Made by a program: the position numbers and the translations under genes
In this document: piece by piece, positions 3,106-56,538 of the stretch
Layout: the number at the start of each line of letters is the position of its first letter
Position numbering within the stretch: position 1 is the first letter of the stretch
The notes under the pieces: generated by a model
What the model was told of the DNA's origin: nothing
The model's database searches: none
Seen by the model: the letters and a program-made list of their open reading frames with translations, nothing else
Source of the DNA: Kalmanozyma brasiliensis GHG001
Taxonomy: Eukaryota; Basidiomycota; Ustilaginomycetes; Ustilaginales
Direction of reading: 5' to 3'
NCBI RefSeq assembly: GCF_000497045.1
Contig: NW_015961949.1
Coordinates: 186,001 to 250,000, forward strand
Length of the DNA: 64,000 nt

Positions 3106-4149
3106 ATGAGTGCAGCCGGCCCCTCTACCGTCTCTCCGTCGGCGTCGCACCTCGGTGCGGACCCCAAGATCGTGCGTCGCCTCTCCTCGGTCTCGAACAT
3201 CATCTTGGTCCTCTCTGGCAAGGGCGGGGTGGGCAAGTCTTCCGTATCTGCACAGCTGGCGCTCTCACTTTCCTCGTCCACGCACTCTTCCGGGCGTCCG
3301 ATCCGCGTGGGGATCCTGGATATCGACCTTACCGGACCGTCGATCCCCCGCATGCTCGGGTTGGACGGCGCTACGGTGAAACAAAGCACGGACGGCTGGG
3401 TGCCCGTGTACACCGACACCACGCAATCCCTCGCGGTCATGTCGGTCGGCTTCCTGCTCCGCTCTCGCAACGATAGTGTCGTCTGGAGGGGGCCCAAGAA
3501 GAATGCCATGATCAAGCAGTTCCTTGGCGACGTCCGATGGGGTCAACTCGACTACTTGATCATCGACACGCCACCAGGGACCAGCGACGAGCACATTAGC
3601 ATCCTCGAGTATCTCCGAACGTTCAACCCCGCAGCCGTGATGGTCACCACCCCTCAAGCCGTCTCCCTCGCGGACAACCTGAGGAGTCTCGACTTTTGCA
3701 GGAAAACAAGCCTACCTCTGCTAGGGCTGGTGGAGAACATGTCCGGCTACATCTGCCCGCATTGCAAGGACTGTACCAACGTCTGGGGCAAAGGTGGCGG
3801 CGAAGCGCTCGCCAAACGCGAAGGTTTGCACTTCTTGGGTAGGATACCCATCGATCCTGGCCTGGTGCGTGTGTTGGACGATGCAAAGGAGGATGCACAA
3901 CAGATCGTCAGCCAGCTCGGCGAGACAAGTCTCGAGGATGGCGCGATACACAAGCCTCTGACCGAGAATGGCGAGCTGACGGCGGGGGAGAAGGATGATA
4001 CCCCAGCAGGGACCGTGTTGTCGAGAACAACCATTCAGAGGTACAAGGACAGTTTGACCTTCCCCATCTTTCAGGAGATCACGGATCAGATTCGCGAGCT
4101 CGCGGAGCAACATAAGGCGGGATCAGCGAACAGCGCCGGTTCCTCGTGA
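3106..4149 (+). CDS. CFD1: cytosolic Fe-S cluster assembly P-loop ATPase Cfd1 (NUBP2)
   Basis: Mrp/NBP35-family scaffold that, with Nbp35, assembles 4Fe-4S clusters for cytosolic and nuclear proteins. The 347-residue protein has the deviant Walker [10 protein letters not shown] (38-46), the switch region [25 protein letters not shown], and the cluster-bridging CPHC (Cys217 and Cys220) followed by Cys223. It lacks the N-terminal four-cysteine ferredoxin-like motif of Nbp35, which marks it as the Cfd1/NUBP2 partner. A C-terminal extension of about 60 residues after the conserved fold is polar and poorly conserved. The start is the first ATG of the frame and leaves about 30 residues before the P-loop domain. 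Intronless. Confidence 0.93.
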
Positions 4150-47390: not shown

Positions 47391-50300
47391 TTAGAAGTCC
47401 TCGTCCTCCGAATCATCGATCTTGTAGCTCATCTTGCCCGAAGCGCCTCGTGCCGAGCGACCCGAGGCGCGAGCAGGAGCAGCCGAAGCGGGGCTGTCGA
47501 TCATGAACGAGTCTTCGGTGTCCGAGGCCGGTGCGGCGGCCTTCTTGCGTCCCAGACCGGTGGCTGTCTTCTTGCCAGCAGCAGGCTTGGCGGCGGCAGC
47601 CTTTTTGGCCTTGGGAGCTGCGATGGTGTCGTCCTCCGAGTCAGACAAGTTGAAAGACTTGGGGGCTTCCACCGGCTTGCTCGCGGCCGCTTTCTTGGGA
47701 GCGGCGGCCTTCTTCGTGGCAGCAGCGGGTTTGCTGCTTGTGCCAGCGGCTCGGAACAGCGGAGCGAGCTTCGAGTCGTCGCCATCGTCCAGCTCGACGA
47801 CCTGAGGAGTGGTTGCTCGCGAAGCAGTGGCCGACCTCGAGACAGATGCGTTTGCACGCGGCTTCTTGGCGGCGGCGCCGTTGGAGGTGGTGCCAAGCAG
47901 CAGCTTCATGTCGTCGTCATCCAAGGCGTCAGCGGCGGCACGCTTCTTGGCTGGGCTGACACGAGCAGGAGCGGCTGCCTTCTTCTTACCCGCAGCGGCG
48001 GACGGCTTGAAGTCGTCCTCAGAGTCATCGCCGTCGATGTCGTCCATGCCGTCATCTTCCTCTTCGCCGTCCGAGTTGATCGCCTTCTTGAGAACGCGGC
48101 GGGCTGCAGCACCAGTCTTGGCCGAAGCCTTCTTCGTCTGCTTGCCTTTCTTGACCTTGGTGACGACATCCTTAAGGCGGCGTTCATCTTCTTCGAGCAT
48201 CTCTTCCCAAAGCTCAATGAACTTGCCCAGGTCCTCGTCCCACAGGTTCTGGGGCGAGCGGCCGATGAGGATCTTGAGCTCTTCCTCCTTGCCGTCGCGC
48301 TCCTTCAGAAGCTTCTCGACCTTCTCCTTGGTCAGGTTGTAGATGGCCATGTTGAGCAGGTAGTCGAAGTCCGAGTCGGCTGAGATATCTTCCTCATCCA
48401 CCGGCTCATCGTCCTCGGGGTTGGCAGCGATCGCCGCCTTGCCCTGCTTGGGGAAGGGTCGGAAGTCCTTCTCGCGCAGGTCTTTGACAATGTCGGCGCG
48501 TTTGCGGTTGGACACGACGAGCTGACGAGTGATGATCATCTGCACGAAGCGAGCCTGGTTGGACAGCTTGTCGTACATGAGCTTGAGCTGATCCACCAGG
48601 TGTTCCTTCCTCTTCTGGTAGTACGAGAGACGAAGGAGGTAGAACTCCTCCAAGATCTCCTCGGGCGAAGAGTATTTCTTGATCTTGCCATCCTGGTCGA
48701 ACAGCACCATGTTGGTGGTGGAGATCTGGCACGAGAGCTTGAAGAAAGCATCCGGCCCCTTTTCGGCGATCTCAGCCTGACCTTTGGTGGTCAGCTCGAC
48801 GATAAAGTTGACGGTCGACTCGGTGTGATACTCCTTGTAGTCCTTGATGGTTGCAGGCTGCTTCTCCGACGACAGGACGCGCTCTTCGAGCGACTCTTTG
48901 TAATTCGAAGTCCAGGTTCGGATGGGCAGCTCGGTGATCTCCCAGGTCTTCTCGTCAATCTGGTTGACACGACCGCTCACCTTGAAACGACCAGGAGCGA
49001 ACTCCTCGACGGTACCGGTGAAGCCACGGAACCATGGCTTCAGAGGAATAACGTCTTCGCCGGCCATGCGTCGTCGCAAATTGGCAACAATCTCGTGTGG
49101 GTTGTAGGTGGGCACCGAAGTCGACCATCCGGTACCGATACCGTCAGCACCGTTCATGAGGACCTGGGGGGCCACAGGGATATACCAGTGAGGCTCGACC
49201 TTGGTTCCATCATCCTCCAGGTAATCGAGCAGAGCGTCATCCGACTGAGGGAACAGAGCCCGTGAGATCTTGGGCAAAGCGGTGAAGATGTATCGTCCGG
49301 AAGCGGCGTCCTTACCGCCGAGGAGACGAGTACCGAATTGACCCCTGGGCTCGAGCATGTTGACGTTGTTGCTACCCACAAAGTTCTGCGCGAGACCAAC
49401 GATGGTCATGGTCAGCGCAGCATCACCGTGATGATAAGCTGCCTGACCCAAGACCGTGCCCACGAGGGTCTGAACCTTCAACTCACCCTGGGTCTTCCTG
49501 TTGAGCATAATGTACATGACCTTGCGCTGACCAGGCTTGAGACCGTCGACGACTGAAGGAATGGAACGCATGTTGTCCGCCATGGAGAAGAGGATGAGCT
49601 CCTTGTTGACAAAGTCGGCGTACGGAATGAGGTGAGCGTTGTGGTCCAGGTAGGTGCCAGGTCGGAACTGTCGGAGCCACTCTTTACGATCATCGGCCTT
49701 CTTCTTGTTGAAAGCGAGGTCGATGAGCTCGCGATCGCCGTCCTTGGTGACGTCGAAGGGCAGCCTGTGCTTGGGGAGGTCTCGGAAATACTTCTTGGCA
49801 TCCTTGCTATCCGAAGTACCGAGACCCTTGTAGTACTTGACGTGCCAGCCCTTACCACCGTTGTGAGACTCCCTCCATTGCTCGTATTCCGGAATCGTGA
49901 AGAAGGACAGGTCCTGGTTGCCCTTTTTGCACCTGACGATTGGAGTGACGAATTCGACAAGGAAGCCGGGGATCTTGAGCAGCGACGGGTAAAAGTGATC
50001 GAGGAAGTTGATGATGAGACCTTTGATGTGCGAACCATCGTGATCCTGATCGGTCATGATCATGATGCTGCCGTATCGAAGACTGTTGACGTCGAGGTAC
50101 TGCTTGCCGTGCTGCAGACCCAGGATCTCCTTGATGGCCTTGATCTCGGCATTTTTCATGATCTGGTCGTGCGAGGCTTCACGGACGTTCAAGAGCTTAC
50201 CACGAAGCGGGAAAACGCCGTAGTTGTCCCTTCCGACCTCGACGATACCGGCGACAGCCAACGATTTGGCGGAGTCACCTTCAGTGAGGATGAGGGTGCA

Positions 50301-51923
50301 GTCTCGCGCTTTCCTTCCACCGGCGTTGTTGGCGTCCTCGAGTTTGGGGATGTTGGTGATGCGGGTACGCTTGTGGCCGTCGGTCTTCTTGAGCGCCTGG
50401 TCCTGCTTGAAGCGCGCAAAGCTGACGATGTTGTCGACGACACCGGACTTGATGACCTTCTTGGCGAACTCGTCGGTCAGGGTCCATTTGCTGCCAAACG
50501 CGCTCTGCTTGAGCGTGAGGGTCTCCTTGGTCTGACCGTCGAAGGTGGGGTTGACAATCTGACAGTTGACAAAGACCCAGAGCTGCTGTCGGACCTGATT
50601 GGGCATGACCTTTCCTGTCTTCTTGTCCTTCTTGACGTGGTCGATGAGGCGCGTGATGACCTGGTCAGCCACGTGGTCGACGTGCTTACCACCCTTGATA
50701 GTAGCGATATTATTGACGAACGAGACTTGACGGAACTCACCATCCGAGACGGCGAAGGCTACTTCCCAGGTGCGTCCTTTGTCGACGACCGACTCGTAGA
50801 TGATGGCCGGCTTGGGAGCGGCGCCGGCGGGCACGTCACCACCAGCACCACCTTCCTCGCCATTGTCGGCCTTGCCACCCAGCTCGTTGATGGCAGTGAC
50901 GTACATCTCGACGTACTGCTTGAAGTTCTTGATCTTGAGCAGCTCGCCGTTGAGGGTGACCTTGATGCCCTTGACGGTACCTGCCATGTCGTAGACACGC
51001 TTGAGCATGAGGGCCTCCATGTGGTCGTCGATGGACTCCATGCCAAACAGGGCGAGGTCGGGCTTGAAGGTGATCGAGGTGTACTCATCGGCCTTGCTGT
51101 GCTTGGTGATCTTGGGCTTGCCCTTGTCGTGCATGTTCTTGGTGAAGGTCTGCTTGTACTTGGCCTGGTTCTTGGCATCGGCGGTCTCGACGGTGAACTC
51201 GGTGGAGTAGATGTTGGCGAGCTTGGCACCGTAACCGTTCCTACCACCGGTGACCTTGGCCTCGTTGTCGTCGTAGTTGGACGAGGTGAGGAGATGACCA
51301 AAGATGAGCTCGGGGATGTAGACCTTCTCCTTGTCGTGCATCTCGACAGGGATACCGTGACCGTTGTTCCAGACCATGATGGAGTTGTCCTCGCGGTTGA
51401 TGTCGACCTTGAGGTGGGTCATGCCGGGATCGCGCGCCTTGTTGTCAGCAGCATTGACAAGGATTTCGTCAAAGATCTTGTAGAAGCCGGGAACGTAAGT
51501 CGTCTCGCGGTAGGCCATCTGCTTCTTGGTCTTGTCAAAGACCCAGAGCTTCTCTGTGTGCTTCTCGACACTGCCGATGTAAGTATCAGGACGCTTGAGA
51601 ATATGTTCGAGCTGCGAGAGCTTTTGGTATGTCTCGGAAGCGCTCTTGCCGTTGGCCGACTTGGAAGGTGCAACAGGCTGGAACGAGACATCAGCCTCGC
51701 TGTCAATCATGCTGACATCTGGGTCGCTGTCGGCGCCATTACTGTTGCGTTTAGCCAAGGGCTGTTTCTTTGGCTTGGCAGCAGCGCCACTAGCCTTGGA
51801 GGCGCCTGCCTTCGCACCGGCAGCAGCCTTGGGTTTAGGAGGCGCTTTCGTCTTGGGAGCAGCGGCCTTCTTCGCCGGGATGGCAAAGTCGGAAGTATCT
51901 GACATGTAGTCTGACTCGGACAT
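47391..51923 (-). CDS. TOP2: DNA topoisomerase II
   Basis: Type IIA topoisomerase that passes one duplex through another with ATP; nuclear, essential for chromosome segregation. The 1510 residues are full length. The GHKL ATPase has DEILVNAADNKARD, WNNGHGIPVEMHDKE and GGRNGYGAKLANIYS. The TOPRIM domain has TEGDSAKSLA (Glu548) and MTDQDHDGSHIKGL. The breakage-reunion domain carries the catalytic Tyr878 in GKDAASGRYIFT, with the upstream YHHGDAALT loop. The C-terminal domain (about 1200-1510) is Ala/Lys/acidic-rich with NLS-like and phosphorylation-like tracts, as usual for this divergent region. The start ATG at 51923 gives a short basic/Ala-rich N-tail before the ATPase domain. Intronless despite its size. 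Confidence 0.98.
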   Translation of the reverse strand: MSESDYMSDTSDFAIPAKKAAAPKTKAPPKPKAAAGAKAGASKASGAAAKPKKQPLAKRNSNGADSDPDVSMIDSEADVSFQPVAPSKSANGKSASETYQKLSQLEHILKRPDTYIGSVEKHTEKLWVFDKTKKQMAYRETTYVPGFYKIFDEILVNAADNKARDPGMTHLKVDINREDNSIMVWNNGHGIPVEMHDKEKVYIPELIFGHLLTSSNYDDNEAKVTGGRNGYGAKLANIYSTEFTVETADAKNQAKYKQTFTKNMHDKGKPKITKHSKADEYTSITFKPDLALFGMESIDDHMEALMLKRVYDMAGTVKGIKVTLNGELLKIKNFKQYVEMYVTAINELGGKADNGEEGGAGGDVPAGAAPKPAIIYESVVDKGRTWEVAFAVSDGEFRQVSFVNNIATIKGGKHVDHVADQVITRLIDHVKKDKKTGKVMPNQVRQQLWVFVNCQIVNPTFDGQTKETLTLKQSAFGSKWTLTDEFAKKVIKSGVVDNIVSFARFKQDQALKKTDGHKRTRITNIPKLEDANNAGGRKARDCTLILTEGDSAKSLAVAGIVEVGRDNYGVFPLRGKLLNVREASHDQIMKNAEIKAIKEILGLQHGKQYLDVNSLRYGSIMIMTDQDHDGSHIKGLIINFLDHFYPSLLKIPGFLVEFVTPIVRCKKGNQDLSFFTIPEYEQWRESHNGGKGWHVKYYKGLGTSDSKDAKKYFRDLPKHRLPFDVTKDGDRELIDLAFNKKKADDRKEWLRQFRPGTYLDHNAHLIPYADFVNKELILFSMADNMRSIPSVVDGLKPGQRKVMYIMLNRKTQGELKVQTLVGTVLGQAAYHHGDAALTMTIVGLAQNFVGSNNVNMLEPRGQFGTRLLGGKDAASGRYIFTALPKISRALFPQSDDALLDYLEDDGTKVEPHWYIPVAPQVLMNGADGIGTGWSTSVPTYNPHEIVANLRRRMAGEDVIPLKPWFRGFTGTVEEFAPGRFKVSGRVNQIDEKTWEITELPIRTWTSNYKESLEERVLSSEKQPATIKDYKEYHTESTVNFIVELTTKGQAEIAEKGPDAFFKLSCQISTTNMVLFDQDGKIKKYSSPEEILEEFYLLRLSYYQKRKEHLVDQLKLMYDKLSNQARFVQMIITRQLVVSNRKRADIVKDLREKDFRPFPKQGKAAIAANPEDDEPVDEEDISADSDFDYLLNMAIYNLTKEKVEKLLKERDGKEEELKILIGRSPQNLWDEDLGKFIELWEEMLEEDERRLKDVVTKVKKGKQTKKASAKTGAAARRVLKKAINSDGEEEDDGMDDIDGDDSEDDFKPSAAAGKKKAAAPARVSPAKKRAAADALDDDDMKLLLGTTSNGAAAKKPRANASVSRSATASRATTPQVVELDDGDDSKLAPLFRAAGTSSKPAAATKKAAAPKKAAASKPVEAPKSFNLSDSEDDTIAAPKAKKAAAAKPAAGKKTATGLGRKKAAAPASDTEDSFMIDSPASAAPARASGRSARGASGKMSYKIDDSEDEDF

Positions 51924-52919: not shown

Positions 52920-55367
52920 TCACGACGGGGAGACGCAAGTCTTCGCAGGTGAGCGACGGAGCAACAGCCTCTTGAGAGGCTCGAGAACGGTACGCGAGAA
53001 CGGTCCCGCTAGCGCCACCGAAGCACCGATGCGGATTGGAAGCAGCGCCTTGACCAGAATATAGGCCGCGACCATGTTGGCAAACGAGCCTGCAAAGCGT
53101 CTCGAGTCGCCGAGGTCATTGGCTGCATTGATCGACTCGATGTCCTGCTTTTCGAAGCCGAGGTAGCCCTTCTTTCGACAGTACCGCTCGAAGCGCTGCT
53201 CCTTCAGACGTGCCCAAGCCCGAAAGCGAGACAGCAGCGGTTGCGAGTCGGCCTCGCTCTGCGAAGCTGCGGCGTCCGCGTCGCCGAGAAGCCACTGCAA
53301 GACGGCTGTCCCAACGCCGAGCGCGCCAAATACGTAGAAGAGGATCGCCAACGGGATGATGGCAGTGAGCTCGTGCAAGACCAGGAAAGAGGCCATCATG
53401 GTCGGCGCATCCGTGCCGTTCCTCTTTGCGATCGAGCGAATGCGCGTCATCGCCCGCTTCAGGCTCGACTGCGAGCCAGCGCTAGCTTTTCCCGTATACA
53501 GCCACGTGACGTTGGGATCTTTGTCGCCCGCCAGCCAGAAGGGCTTGAGCGTATCAGGCAGCACCAGTTTGCCATTCTCCACGCCGTGGTTCTCGAGGAT
53601 AGCCACGATGAGACGCGGGATCGCGGCTGCCGTGGCATTGAGCGTATGCACGGTAGGATGTTCCGGATCGTTCACATCGTTCGCGTTTGTTCCTGCATTC
53701 CTGATTTGGATGCGCAGCCTTCGCGCTTGATAGGTCGTGCAGTTCGAAGCTGAAGAGACCTCACCCCACGATCCTCGTCCCGGCATCCACACCTCGATGT
53801 CGTACTTGCGATATGCACTCGCTCCGAGCTCTTCTGTGGGCATGTCCAGCACACGGTACGGCAGACCGAGCCCACCGATCACCTCCTCCTGGATGGTGCG
53901 TAGCTCTTCGAGCATGGCATCACTCGCTTGCAGGTCGCCTTCTGTGGCGACAAACATCTCGATTTTGCTGAACTGATGCACACGGTAAAGTCCACGCGTG
54001 TCTGCTCCACGTGCGCCGGCTTCGGCACGGAAGGCATGCCCAAGCGCTGCAAGCTTGATGGGTAGCTCTGACGTTTGGATCAAGGAGGATGCACCACTGG
54101 CCGGAGAGGATGGCTTGCCCCCCTTGTTGGAAGCGTCGAGTTGACGACCTGCGAGCAAACCGGCGAGCGGGATCTCGGCTGTGGCGGCCAGGCAGAGATC
54201 TGCCGAGTCATCCGAGCTGTTGCTTTTGGTCGGCTCGAGAAAGTAGGTTTGCTTGGCCTTCTCGTCCCTCGGGCGGAATCCACATCGATCCGCGAGATCA
54301 GCTCGAACGACATCGGGCGGTGAAACGGCCAAGAATCCTTTGCGAACCACGATCGACATGGCGTATTGCGACAAGGCATGCTCGAGCAAGCTGATGCTTC
54401 CCAGCAGATACGGCCACGAGCTTCCGGTGGTCAACAATCCTGAGACCGTATCCACCTCTGCTCCGCTGGCGGTGGCCGCTAGTGAAAGATGTTCGCGTTT
54501 CGGATCTGCCTCGGGTCCGTCGGGGAAGTCTTTGGCTTGCATCACTGACTTGTTCCACGGCTCCTTCACCAGGTCAAATTCCTTGGGGAGGATATTGAGG
54601 GAGTCTTGAACAGAGACCAACACCGCATTCTGCTCGGGGCCGAGCGGGACATCCGGGTGGCACTGGTTGGGCCAGGACAGGCGCACTTCCGCGCTTCGTG
54701 AACGAAGCTCGTCTTGCTGCTTGCGTGTTGCCTCGAGCTCCTCTTTGACCTTCCTGGCACGTTTCTTCACTTCTGCGATGTACTTTTGCTTGCCTTCGTT
54801 GCCTTCGTTGCTGCTCGGCTCCTCTTTGATCGAAGTAGTAGCGGAAATGTCGGTTCCGAGATCGTCGCTCGCACTGGTGCTCTTGTCCTTTCCCTTTCTG
54901 GAAGTCGACTGATAGTGCTCATTGAGCTCGTTGGTCAAGTCCCTCAGCTGTTTGGATTGCTCCTTCTCCTTCACGTTGAGCGTGTACAGACTATGCCGCG
55001 CCTCTCTGAGCCATTGGAGATCCGCCTCGTCGTATGGCATCTTTCTGAGTTGCATGTCGCGCCTTGCTTCGTCGATGAAGGCGTTGCTCACGCCTCTCCC
55101 TGGAAGCGGGGGTTGCAGCTTCCTCGGCTTTGGCGCGGGGGGCGATGTGGGAGAGCCTTCTTTGCGTCTCAGCCTGCCTGCCTTTCTTTCGGACAACGGT
55201 GCATTTGACCGAGGCGGACTCTTACTGATGCCCAGCGTCACCCTTGATGTGGAAGCGAACCGCGAACTGGTTTGGAGAGCCTCCGCCGACGAGCGGAATC
55301 GATTTGCCTCGACGCAGGGTCGCGCTGTGGACCGCCATATAGCGCTGGAGCTGACTCGTATCGACAT
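52920..55367 (-). CDS. DIA4: mitochondrial seryl-tRNA synthetase fused to a FLILHELTA-family membrane domain
   Basis: One open 815-codon frame. Residues 1 to about 45 look like a mitochondrial presequence (Arg/Ser-rich). About 95-250 is the SerRS tRNA-binding coiled-coil arm with a charged insertion. The class II catalytic domain (about 300-615) has motif 1 near LLEHALSQYAMSIVVRKGF, motif 2 FRAEAGARGADTRGLYRVHQ (446-465) and motif 3 GRGSWGEVSSASNCTTYQAR (530-549). After FWLAGDKDPN, where SerRS proteins end, a linker of about 40 residues leads into FLVLHELTA (661-669). This is the signature of the fungal mitochondrial FLILHELTA family (two hydrophobic helices, YCRKKGYLGFE, then AYILVKALLPIRIGASVALA). 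The first half charges mitochondrial tRNA-Ser; the second may anchor it to the inner membrane. No stop, frameshift or splice site separates them. Confidence 0.88.
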   Translation of the reverse strand: MSIRVSSSAIWRSTARPCVEANRFRSSAEALQTSSRFASTSRVTLGISKSPPRSNAPLSERKAGRLRRKEGSPTSPPAPKPRKLQPPLPGRGVSNAFIDEARRDMQLRKMPYDEADLQWLREARHSLYTLNVKEKEQSKQLRDLTNELNEHYQSTSRKGKDKSTSASDDLGTDISATTSIKEEPSSNEGNEGKQKYIAEVKKRARKVKEELEATRKQQDELRSRSAEVRLSWPNQCHPDVPLGPEQNAVLVSVQDSLNILPKEFDLVKEPWNKSVMQAKDFPDGPEADPKREHLSLAATASGAEVDTVSGLLTTGSSWPYLLGSISLLEHALSQYAMSIVVRKGFLAVSPPDVVRADLADRCGFRPRDEKAKQTYFLEPTKSNSSDDSADLCLAATAEIPLAGLLAGRQLDASNKGGKPSSPASGASSLIQTSELPIKLAALGHAFRAEAGARGADTRGLYRVHQFSKIEMFVATEGDLQASDAMLEELRTIQEEVIGGLGLPYRVLDMPTEELGASAYRKYDIEVWMPGRGSWGEVSSASNCTTYQARRLRIQIRNAGTNANDVNDPEHPTVHTLNATAAAIPRLIVAILENHGVENGKLVLPDTLKPFWLAGDKDPNVTWLYTGKASAGSQSSLKRAMTRIRSIAKRNGTDAPTMMASFLVLHELTAIIPLAILFYVFGALGVGTAVLQWLLGDADAAASQSEADSQPLLSRFRAWARLKEQRFERYCRKKGYLGFEKQDIESINAANDLGDSRRFAGSFANMVAAYILVKALLPIRIGASVALAGPFSRTVLEPLKRLLLRRSPAKTCVSPS

Positions 55368-55731
55368 GCTTGCCTCGCTCGCTCGATGGAGCTTCCAGAT
55401 GATGTGCAGAAGAGGTCGTGGGTGAAGTGAAAGGCTCTCTCTCGGTTGGATAATTCAGGGTTCACGAGGAGGAGGTGTGGAGGCCAAATCGAGCCTTTCT
55501 TCTCATTTCTCAACTTTTTTTGTGGGCCAGCGTGTTGCAATTCTCGTCCGGTACAGCTCGAGCCAGAGCCGGCTGGCAGGCTTACGTTGCGCGACCAAAG
55601 CTCAGCACAAGCCAAGAAGGGTCGAAATTGGGCCCCTTTGATCCTCGTCTGTCGCAAGCTAATCCCTTCTTCCTACCTCGCTAGCCCTCACCCCGTGTCC
55701 TCGACTCCTCATCCTCTTCATCTTGCCCAGC
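55368..55731. other. divergent promoter region, SerRS fusion / PHB1
   Basis: 364 bp shared by two mitochondrial-protein genes. A short T-run lies near 55515. No clear element. Confidence 0.5.
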
Positions 55732-56538
55732 ATGTCGACTTTGATGGCCCGCTTCGCCGTCCCTCTGGGGCTCGGCGTCATGGCACTCCAGGCATCGCTC
55801 TACGACGTTCCAGGTGGATACCGCGCCGTCATGTTCGACCGTTTCCAGGGTGTTAAGGACATTGCTACCGGCGAGGGCACCCACGTTCTCGTCCCTTGGC
55901 TCCAAAAGGCCATCCTCTACGACGTCCGCATCAAGCCACGCAACATCTCCACCACCACGGGCTCCAAGGATCTGCAGATGGTCTCGTTGACGCTCCGTGT
56001 GCTCAGCCGACCCGACATCCAGCACCTCCCCAAGATCTACCAGTCGCTCGGCATCGACTATGACGAGCGAGTGCTTCCGTCCATCGGAAACGAAGTGCTC
56101 AAGGCCACTGTGGCGCAGTTTGACGCTGCCGAGCTCATCACACAGCGAGAGGTCGTCTCGGCTCGCATTCGCGAGGATCTGCTCAAGCGAGCCAAGGAGT
56201 TCAACATCGTCCTAGAAGACGTCTCGATCACGCACATGACGTTCGGACAGGACTTTACAAAGGCGGTCGAGCAAAAGCAGATCGCACAGCAGGACGCAGA
56301 GCGCGCCAAATTCATCGTCGAAAAGGCCGAGCAGGAGCGACAGGCGAGTGTTATCAGGGCAGAGGGAGAAGCCGAGGCGGCGCAAACCATTTCAAGGGCA
56401 CTGGAGAAGGCAGGCGACGGTCTGTTGACCATCCGAAGGATCGAGGCGTCCAAGGATATCGCATCGACATTGAGCAGCGCCAAGAACGTCACTTACCTCC
56501 CACGCGGCCAGGGCATGCTTCTCAACATGCAGACCTGA
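55732..56538 (+). CDS. PHB1: prohibitin 1
   Basis: Subunit of the ring-shaped inner-membrane prohibitin complex that scaffolds m-AAA protease and cardiolipin domains. The 268 residues have an N-terminal membrane-anchoring hydrophobic stretch (about 5-24) and a PHB/SPFH domain. The diagnostic block is [20 protein letters not shown], followed by [20 protein letters not shown] and a C-terminal coiled coil rich in Glu, Ala and Gln. It ends [16 protein letters not shown], close to Phb1 of other fungi and distinct from Phb2. The first ATG is at 55732; the frame's upstream codons include no ATG. Intronless. It converges with the phosphorylase gene (171 bp between stops). Confidence 0.97.

What the first reader, a model, noticed from the sequence alone, without database searches (positions are those of the whole stretch)
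52920..55367. Mitochondrial seryl-tRNA synthetase fused to a FLILHELTA membrane protein
A complete class II SerRS (motifs 1-3 in order, ending at FWLAGDKDPN) continues in the same frame into about 165 residues carrying FLVLHELTA, two hydrophobic segments and the KKGYLGFE/KALLPIR blocks of the fungal FLILHELTA family. That family is of poorly known function. From memory, at least one yeast member has been associated with mitochondrial ribosome assemblies, which needs checking. The fusion would tether a tRNA-charging enzyme to the inner membrane, where mitochondrial translation occurs, and gives a Rosetta-stone hint that the FLILHELTA protein works in mitochondrial translation. I see no splice sites or stop that would separate the halves.
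Basis: partly seen in the sequence, partly recalled or inferred. Interest (0 to 1): 0.8.

Follow-up and report, generated by a model that had tools for sequence, protein, structure and literature searches.

The report
Membrane-tethered mitochondrial seryl-tRNA synthetase fusion
In smut fungi and their relatives the enzyme that loads serine onto mitochondrial tRNA is built as one protein with a little-understood membrane protein, which suggests that this step of protein making is fixed to the mitochondrial inner membrane.

Summary
Window 52920-55367 (-) is one open frame of 815 codons: a mitochondrial-type seryl-tRNA synthetase (SerRS) running on into a Pfam FLILHELTA domain (56.3 bits, cut-off 25), with no stop and no intron candidate found. 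It is no local accident: 56 protein clusters, the window's own included, carry both halves, with named records in three classes of Ustilaginomycotina. Of the 120 best SerRS hits listed (of 6770), 54 are fused. The 66 others are five Tilletia, two unnamed nested ones, one frame-shifted fusion and 58 outside the group so far as named. In Tilletia maclaganii both halves are separate genes. One origin near the base of the subphylum fits, with or without a later split. AlphaFold predicts a complete SerRS plus an all-helical domain with two hydrophobic stretches. Best explanation: SerRS anchored on the matrix face of the inner membrane, beside membrane-bound translation. Anchoring is inferred, not shown. 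A weak but shuffle-resistant similarity links the FLILHELTA C-terminal half to FAM210, whose human member binds mitochondrial EF-Tu (PMC7863409, passages). No title, abstract start or passage that I saw describes the fusion.

The parts
52920..55367 (-). single ORF, 815 aa, mitochondrial SerRS fused to FLILHELTA domain
   Evidence: fused relatives
55188..55367 (-). residues 1-60, probable mitochondrial targeting segment (9 K/R, 3 D/E; low confidence in the model)
   Evidence: no targeting predictor was available, inference
54678..55028 (-). residues 114-230, two-helix tRNA-binding arm of SerRS (helices 114-157 and 188-230); diverged, PF02403 not detected in this protein
53502..54641 (-). residues 243-622, class II catalytic domain with conserved FRAEAGARG, WMPGRGSWGE, HTLNATAAAIPR blocks
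53466..53501 (-). residues 623-634, variable linker between the two halves
   Evidence: alignment
52923..53465 (-). residues 635-815, FLILHELTA (PF10306) membrane domain: helix 635-649, hydrophobic helix 654-683 with invariant H665 E666 T668 A669, helix 710-733, hydrophobic helix 755-774 with invariant Y769 K773, helix 776-804
55368..55731 (.). 364 bp intergenic space shared with the divergent prohibitin-like gene (55732-56538, +)

Best explanation
The gene encodes the mitochondrial seryl-tRNA synthetase as one polypeptide whose C-terminal FLILHELTA domain is inserted in the mitochondrial inner membrane, leaving the enzyme on the matrix side. Serine charging would thus be permanently held where mitoribosomes and EF-Tu work on the membrane. 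Shown here: the in-frame fusion, its presence in named records of three classes of Ustilaginomycotina, the SerRS fold (predicted) and catalytic blocks, and two hydrophobic helices in a strongly conserved domain. Inferred: import into mitochondria, membrane insertion with the SerRS in the matrix, and the advantage in translation.
Against: No biochemical localisation of this protein or an orthologue was found. No targeting or topology predictor was available; orientation rests on the need for SerRS to meet tRNA in the matrix. The probable targeting segment holds 3 acidic residues. Tilletia keeps both genes apart, so covalent tethering is not indispensable. The membrane half has no solved relative by sequence or clear fold match, and its biochemical role is unknown.
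Confidence: 0.68

Rival explanations
1. The FLILHELTA half does its own job in the inner membrane (for example a MIOREX-type or FAM210-type role), and the fusion only keeps two mitochondrial proteins at equal dose. The tether gives no benefit to tRNA charging.
For: In Tilletia maclaganii the two halves are separate genes and both persist (P0062 607 aa SerRS, P0033 328 aa), and in Vanrija humicola (Agaricomycotina) the membrane protein stands alone (P0034). Human FAM210A has been tied to the protease YME1L as well as to EF-Tu (PMC10564795 and PMC7863409, passages).
Against: The fused state is kept over deep branches. That fused partners usually work together is general knowledge.
Confidence: 0.2
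2. One mRNA, two proteins: the precursor is cut after import, or translation also starts at internal ATGs (residues 657, 658), giving separate SerRS and FLILHELTA products.
For: Two adjacent in-frame ATGs lie just before the motif, and two short database proteins begin at this Met (P0030, P0031).
Against: P0031 shares its contig length with P0036, whose SerRS reading is frame-shifted and whose shifted reading continues through the junction into FLILHELTA, so this is a broken fused gene or an assembly error. Position 657 is Met in only 28 of 57 domain rows, Leu in 28 and Ile in 1. Such a start would drop helix 635-649 and the N-terminal targeting segment.
Confidence: 0.1
3. Artefact: the halves are joined by a wrong reading of an intron or stop, or by chance of gene calling.
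For: Two unnamed SerRS proteins nested among fused ones end right after the SerRS (P0060, P0061), which could mark an intron or a split at the junction there.
Against: Stop-free DNA in the window, no candidate intron by the pattern scan, conserved sequence on both sides and fused models from several sources.
Confidence: 0.02

Closest known systems
Ustilago maydis ssm1 (mitochondrial SerRS)
   Same: By description the counterpart in a related smut; deletion reported to cause cell lysis, mRNA paired with antisense as-ssm1 in teliospores (PMC12566771, PMC11941951, PMC5414199; passages only).
   Different: The passages seen describe it only as a SerRS and do not mention a membrane domain. Its sequence was not compared here.
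CAAD-containing aminoacyl-tRNA synthetases of cyanobacteria (PMC4893482)
   Same: A synthetase with an added domain holding two putative transmembrane helices that fixes it to an energy-converting membrane (passages).
   Different: CAAD was found in class I monomeric enzymes (stated in the passage) and acts at thylakoids; here a class II enzyme, normally a dimer, carries another Pfam domain at its C-terminus, in mitochondria by inference.
FLILHELTA family PF10306 (yeast member Mrx11/YPL041C, recalled)
   Same: C-terminal domain is a clear member by score and invariant motif.
   Different: The standalone members seen (P0033, P0034) lack SerRS.
FAM210A/B, DUF1279, PF06916
   Same: Weak match to the last third of the profile (39 of 62 rows at E <= 1, best 0.01) and to the genome's own FAM210 (score 29.4, 0 of 400 shuffles reach it).
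   Different: Scores printed are under Pfam's cut-off of 26; first hydrophobic helix not aligned. The genome also holds a true FAM210 gene (L004).
Human mt-ArgRS (PMC6120215)
   Same: Mitochondrial synthetase found only in the membrane fraction (passages).
   Different: The paper reports no predictable transmembrane segment.

Membership tests
Seryl-tRNA synthetase (class II) | class II core with conserved motif blocks | tested here: met
   PF00587 90 bits vs 29.3; F446 R447 E449, W527 M528, G535 E536, P584 R585 in 60 of 60 SerRS rows of A1
Seryl-tRNA synthetase (class II) | SerRS fold over whole length (predicted model) | tested here: met
Seryl-tRNA synthetase (class II) | N-terminal coiled-coil tRNA arm (PF02403) | tested here: inconclusive
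   PF02403 not found at E <= 1 in this protein, found in 25 of 62 rows, best 3.6e-5; arm predicted as two long helices
Seryl-tRNA synthetase (class II) | NCBIfam equivalog serS cut-off | tested here: not met
   294 vs 301.65 bits, E 1.8e-87; read as divergence outside the catalytic blocks, so the near miss does not unseat the family by the other tests
Seryl-tRNA synthetase (class II) | serylation of mitochondrial tRNA-Ser | not testable with these tools
   needs an enzyme assay
FLILHELTA PF10306 | score over curated cut-off | tested here: met
   56.3 vs 25 bits; 59.9 for the C-terminal part alone
FLILHELTA PF10306 | HELTA motif in a hydrophobic helix | tested here: met
   H665 E666 T668 A669 in 57 of 57 rows, L667 in 52 of 57; helix 654-683, KD up to 2.3
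FAM210A/B (DUF1279) | PF06916 cut-off | tested here: not met
   12.7 bits whole protein, 15.6 C-terminal part, cut-off 26
FAM210A/B (DUF1279) | profile similarity to a true FAM210 | tested here: inconclusive
   hhalign P 3.8e-4, probability 36, 54 columns of the C-terminal half only; best of the 260 other window open frames 20.4 vs 29.4; with the whole 62-row alignment probability only 8, P 0.0043
CAAD-type anchor | CAAD domain present | tested here: not met
   Pfam-A at E <= 1 lists no CAAD match for this protein (that Pfam holds a CAAD model is recalled)

The most novel reading that the evidence does not exclude
FLILHELTA is a fungal offshoot of the FAM210 membrane domain and docks mitochondrial EF-Tu, so the fusion is a membrane station in which seryl-tRNA passes straight from the synthetase to EF-Tu beside the bound mitoribosome, showing what FLILHELTA and FAM210 proteins do.
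Probability: 0.18. Interest if true: 0.85.

Novelty: new variant of a known kind. Interest (0 to 1): 0.62.

Why it matters
A fusion found in three classes of one fungal subphylum ties a membrane family of unknown job to mitochondrial translation, and makes that job testable in two partners at once. It would be a membrane anchor on a class II synthetase, whereas the cyanobacterial anchor is reported only on class I monomers (PMC4893482, passage). The separate genes of Tilletia give a natural comparison of tethered and untethered enzyme. Malassezia and smut fungi carry the fusion, and the U. maydis mitochondrial SerRS gene is reported as needed for viability (PMC12566771, passage).

Tried and rejected

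Literature, openly licensed papers only, capped lists: the word FLILHELTA is in 0 held papers. The other searches were Mrx11/YPL041C (10 of 10 listed), MIOREX (20 of 4690), FAM210A (10 of 10), SerRS with basidiomycete terms (20 of 78), CAAD (10 of 92), DUF1279 with yeast (4 of 4), ssm1 (8 of 8), membrane-anchored synthetases (5 of 5), mitochondrial SerRS with gene fusion (15 of 672). No title or abstract start listed there describes this fusion. I opened 11 papers by passage search only and read none whole.

Full report
OBSERVATION. The reverse strand of 52920-55367 reads as one frame of 815 codons from ATG to TGA. Pfam finds the class II synthetase core at 432-594 and FLILHELTA at 637-738, both above their curated cut-offs. 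Sequence search of solved structures puts mammalian mitochondrial SerRS first, E 5e-61 to 1.3e-60. The junction (about 611-637) holds no stop, no intron candidate in a simple pattern scan, and keeps codon-position bias. The ORF is therefore a real fused coding sequence as far as DNA can show; there is no RNA or protein evidence here.

HOW WIDE IS THE FUSION. Searching with the membrane half, 29 of 29 hits of compatible length, the window's own included, carry both domains; the length window of that search excludes short proteins. A second search for short proteins (about 112-357 aa) found 5: two starting at the internal Met (P0030, P0031), one fragment that still spans the junction (P0032), and two standalone proteins, Tilletia maclaganii P0033 and Vanrija humicola P0034. 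A third search with the SerRS core scored 7997 candidates and lists the best 120 of 6770 hits: 54 carry FLILHELTA and 66 do not. With P0026 and P0028 that makes 56 fused clusters, own included, plus the fragment P0032. The 66 are five Tilletia proteins, P0036 (a frame-shifted fusion), P0060 and P0061 (unnamed), and 58 others: 53 named, which I place in Agaricomycotina or Pucciniomycotina from knowledge of the genera, and 5 unnamed. The 6650 hits beyond the list were not seen, so fused proteins elsewhere are not excluded. By NCBI taxonomy the fused named records checked lie in Ustilaginomycetes (Violaceomyces, Thecaphora), Malasseziomycetes (Malassezia pachydermatis) and three orders of Exobasidiomycetes (Acaromyces, Tilletiaria, Parajaminaea).

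ORIGIN. A tree of 53 chosen SerRS proteins (of 122) without the membrane half puts 29 fused, 5 Tilletia and 2 unnamed proteins on one side (100/99) apart from 17 unfused outgroup rows, on which I rooted it. Tilletia falls among fused rows with weak support (89/75). Holding the fused rows and P0060/P0061 together is not rejected (p 0.201). So one origin near the base of Ustilaginomycotina fits, with Tilletia either branching before it or having split the gene later. Tilletiales belongs to Exobasidiomycetes in NCBI taxonomy, beside three fused orders, which leans towards a later split. In T. maclaganii the two genes carry tags V8E36_002489 and V8E36_002563 and the same longest-contig length, 2012016, so they probably lie on one scaffold, some 70 genes apart; this is inferred from the labels. 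P0060 and P0061 sit within fused rows (99/94) and end just after SerRS; an intron, a split gene or a truncated model are all possible.

THE FAM210 LINK. The part behind the Pfam FLILHELTA model weakly matches FAM210A/B in 39 of 62 rows (E <= 1, best 0.01), under the cut-off in each case printed. Profile comparison with the genome's own FAM210 protein (L004; PF06916 E 2.9e-17) aligns the second hydrophobic helix and the stretch after it: score 29.4, P 3.8e-4; none of 400 block shuffles reaches it (maximum 22.3), and the reversed sequence scores 10.5. Of 261 open frames in the window only the gene itself scores higher; the next is 20.4, although the window also holds membrane proteins such as a CLC channel and a choline-transporter-like protein. 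With the whole 62-row alignment the probability is only 8 percent. I read this as probable distant kinship, or convergence of one helix region, not membership. It matters because the DUF1279 domain of FAM210A was mapped as the part that binds mitochondrial EF-Tu (PMC7863409, passages). Another group ties FAM210A to YME1L and OPA1 processing (PMC10564795, passages), so the lead is not one-sided.

MECHANISM. The most likely mechanism is an anchored enzyme: imported by its N-terminus, SerRS in the matrix, FLILHELTA in the inner membrane, tRNA-Ser charged next to membrane-bound translation. Passages in PMC6120215 state that the mitoribosome and EF-Tu associate with the inner membrane and that human mt-ArgRS is found only in membranes. 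The cyanobacterial CAAD domain shows that an added two-helix domain can fix a synthetase to a membrane with little effect on catalysis (PMC4893482, passages). Because SerRS enzymes are dimers (general knowledge), two anchors per enzyme are expected. The CAAD authors suggest that anchoring each subunit of oligomeric synthetases might pose structural constraints (same passages); this fusion, if anchored, would show that the constraint can be met.

KNOWN OR NEW. Domain pairs of this kind are visible in database annotation (precomputed Pfam columns), and the Ustilago maydis mitochondrial SerRS gene ssm1 is studied for its antisense RNA and its need for viability (PMC12566771, PMC11941951, PMC5414199; passages); I did not compare its sequence. 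No title, abstract start or passage seen in the ten literature searches describes the fusion; several lists were capped and the library lacks most subscription papers; the MIOREX paper was looked up and is not held, and the original ssm1 paper did not appear. In one 2018 table yeast MRX11 stands under 'biological process unknown' (PMC6230623, passage). I rate this a new variant of a known kind: an organelle-membrane-anchored synthetase with a different anchor, enzyme class and organelle.

Noticed in passing
55368-55731 and 55732-56538 (+): The divergent neighbour, 364 bp away, is a Band_7 protein (PF01145 E 1.3e-27) that reads like prohibitin, an inner-membrane scaffold; a shared promoter region is possible.
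   Followed up: partly
L004 1348-2202 (-): The genome holds a separate true FAM210A/B-domain protein of 284 aa (PF06916 E 2.9e-17).
   Followed up: partly
L004 2-1135 (+): Next to it one frame stays open for about 375 codons of glycine-rich, collagen-like repeats (GGP, GQAG, GHAG).
   Followed up: no
P0060, P0061 (unnamed SerRS proteins): They nest among fused proteins but end just after SerRS: a second split, an intron at the junction or a truncated model.
   Followed up: partly
   Followed up: yes
52920-55367, both strands: In U. maydis the ssm1 mRNA pairs with a teliospore antisense transcript as-ssm1 (papers, passages); plus-strand frames of up to 170 codons overlap this gene here, without evidence of coding.
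   Followed up: no
49632-51902 (+): A 756-codon open frame lies antisense to the 1510-aa ORF at 47391-51923 that reads like DNA topoisomerase II (recognised by eye, not scanned); probably a by-product of codon bias.
   Followed up: no
3106-4146 (+): A NUBPL/ParA-type iron-transfer NTPase (PF10609 E 2.1e-85), a family with mitochondrial and cytosolic Fe-S members (recalled).
   Followed up: no
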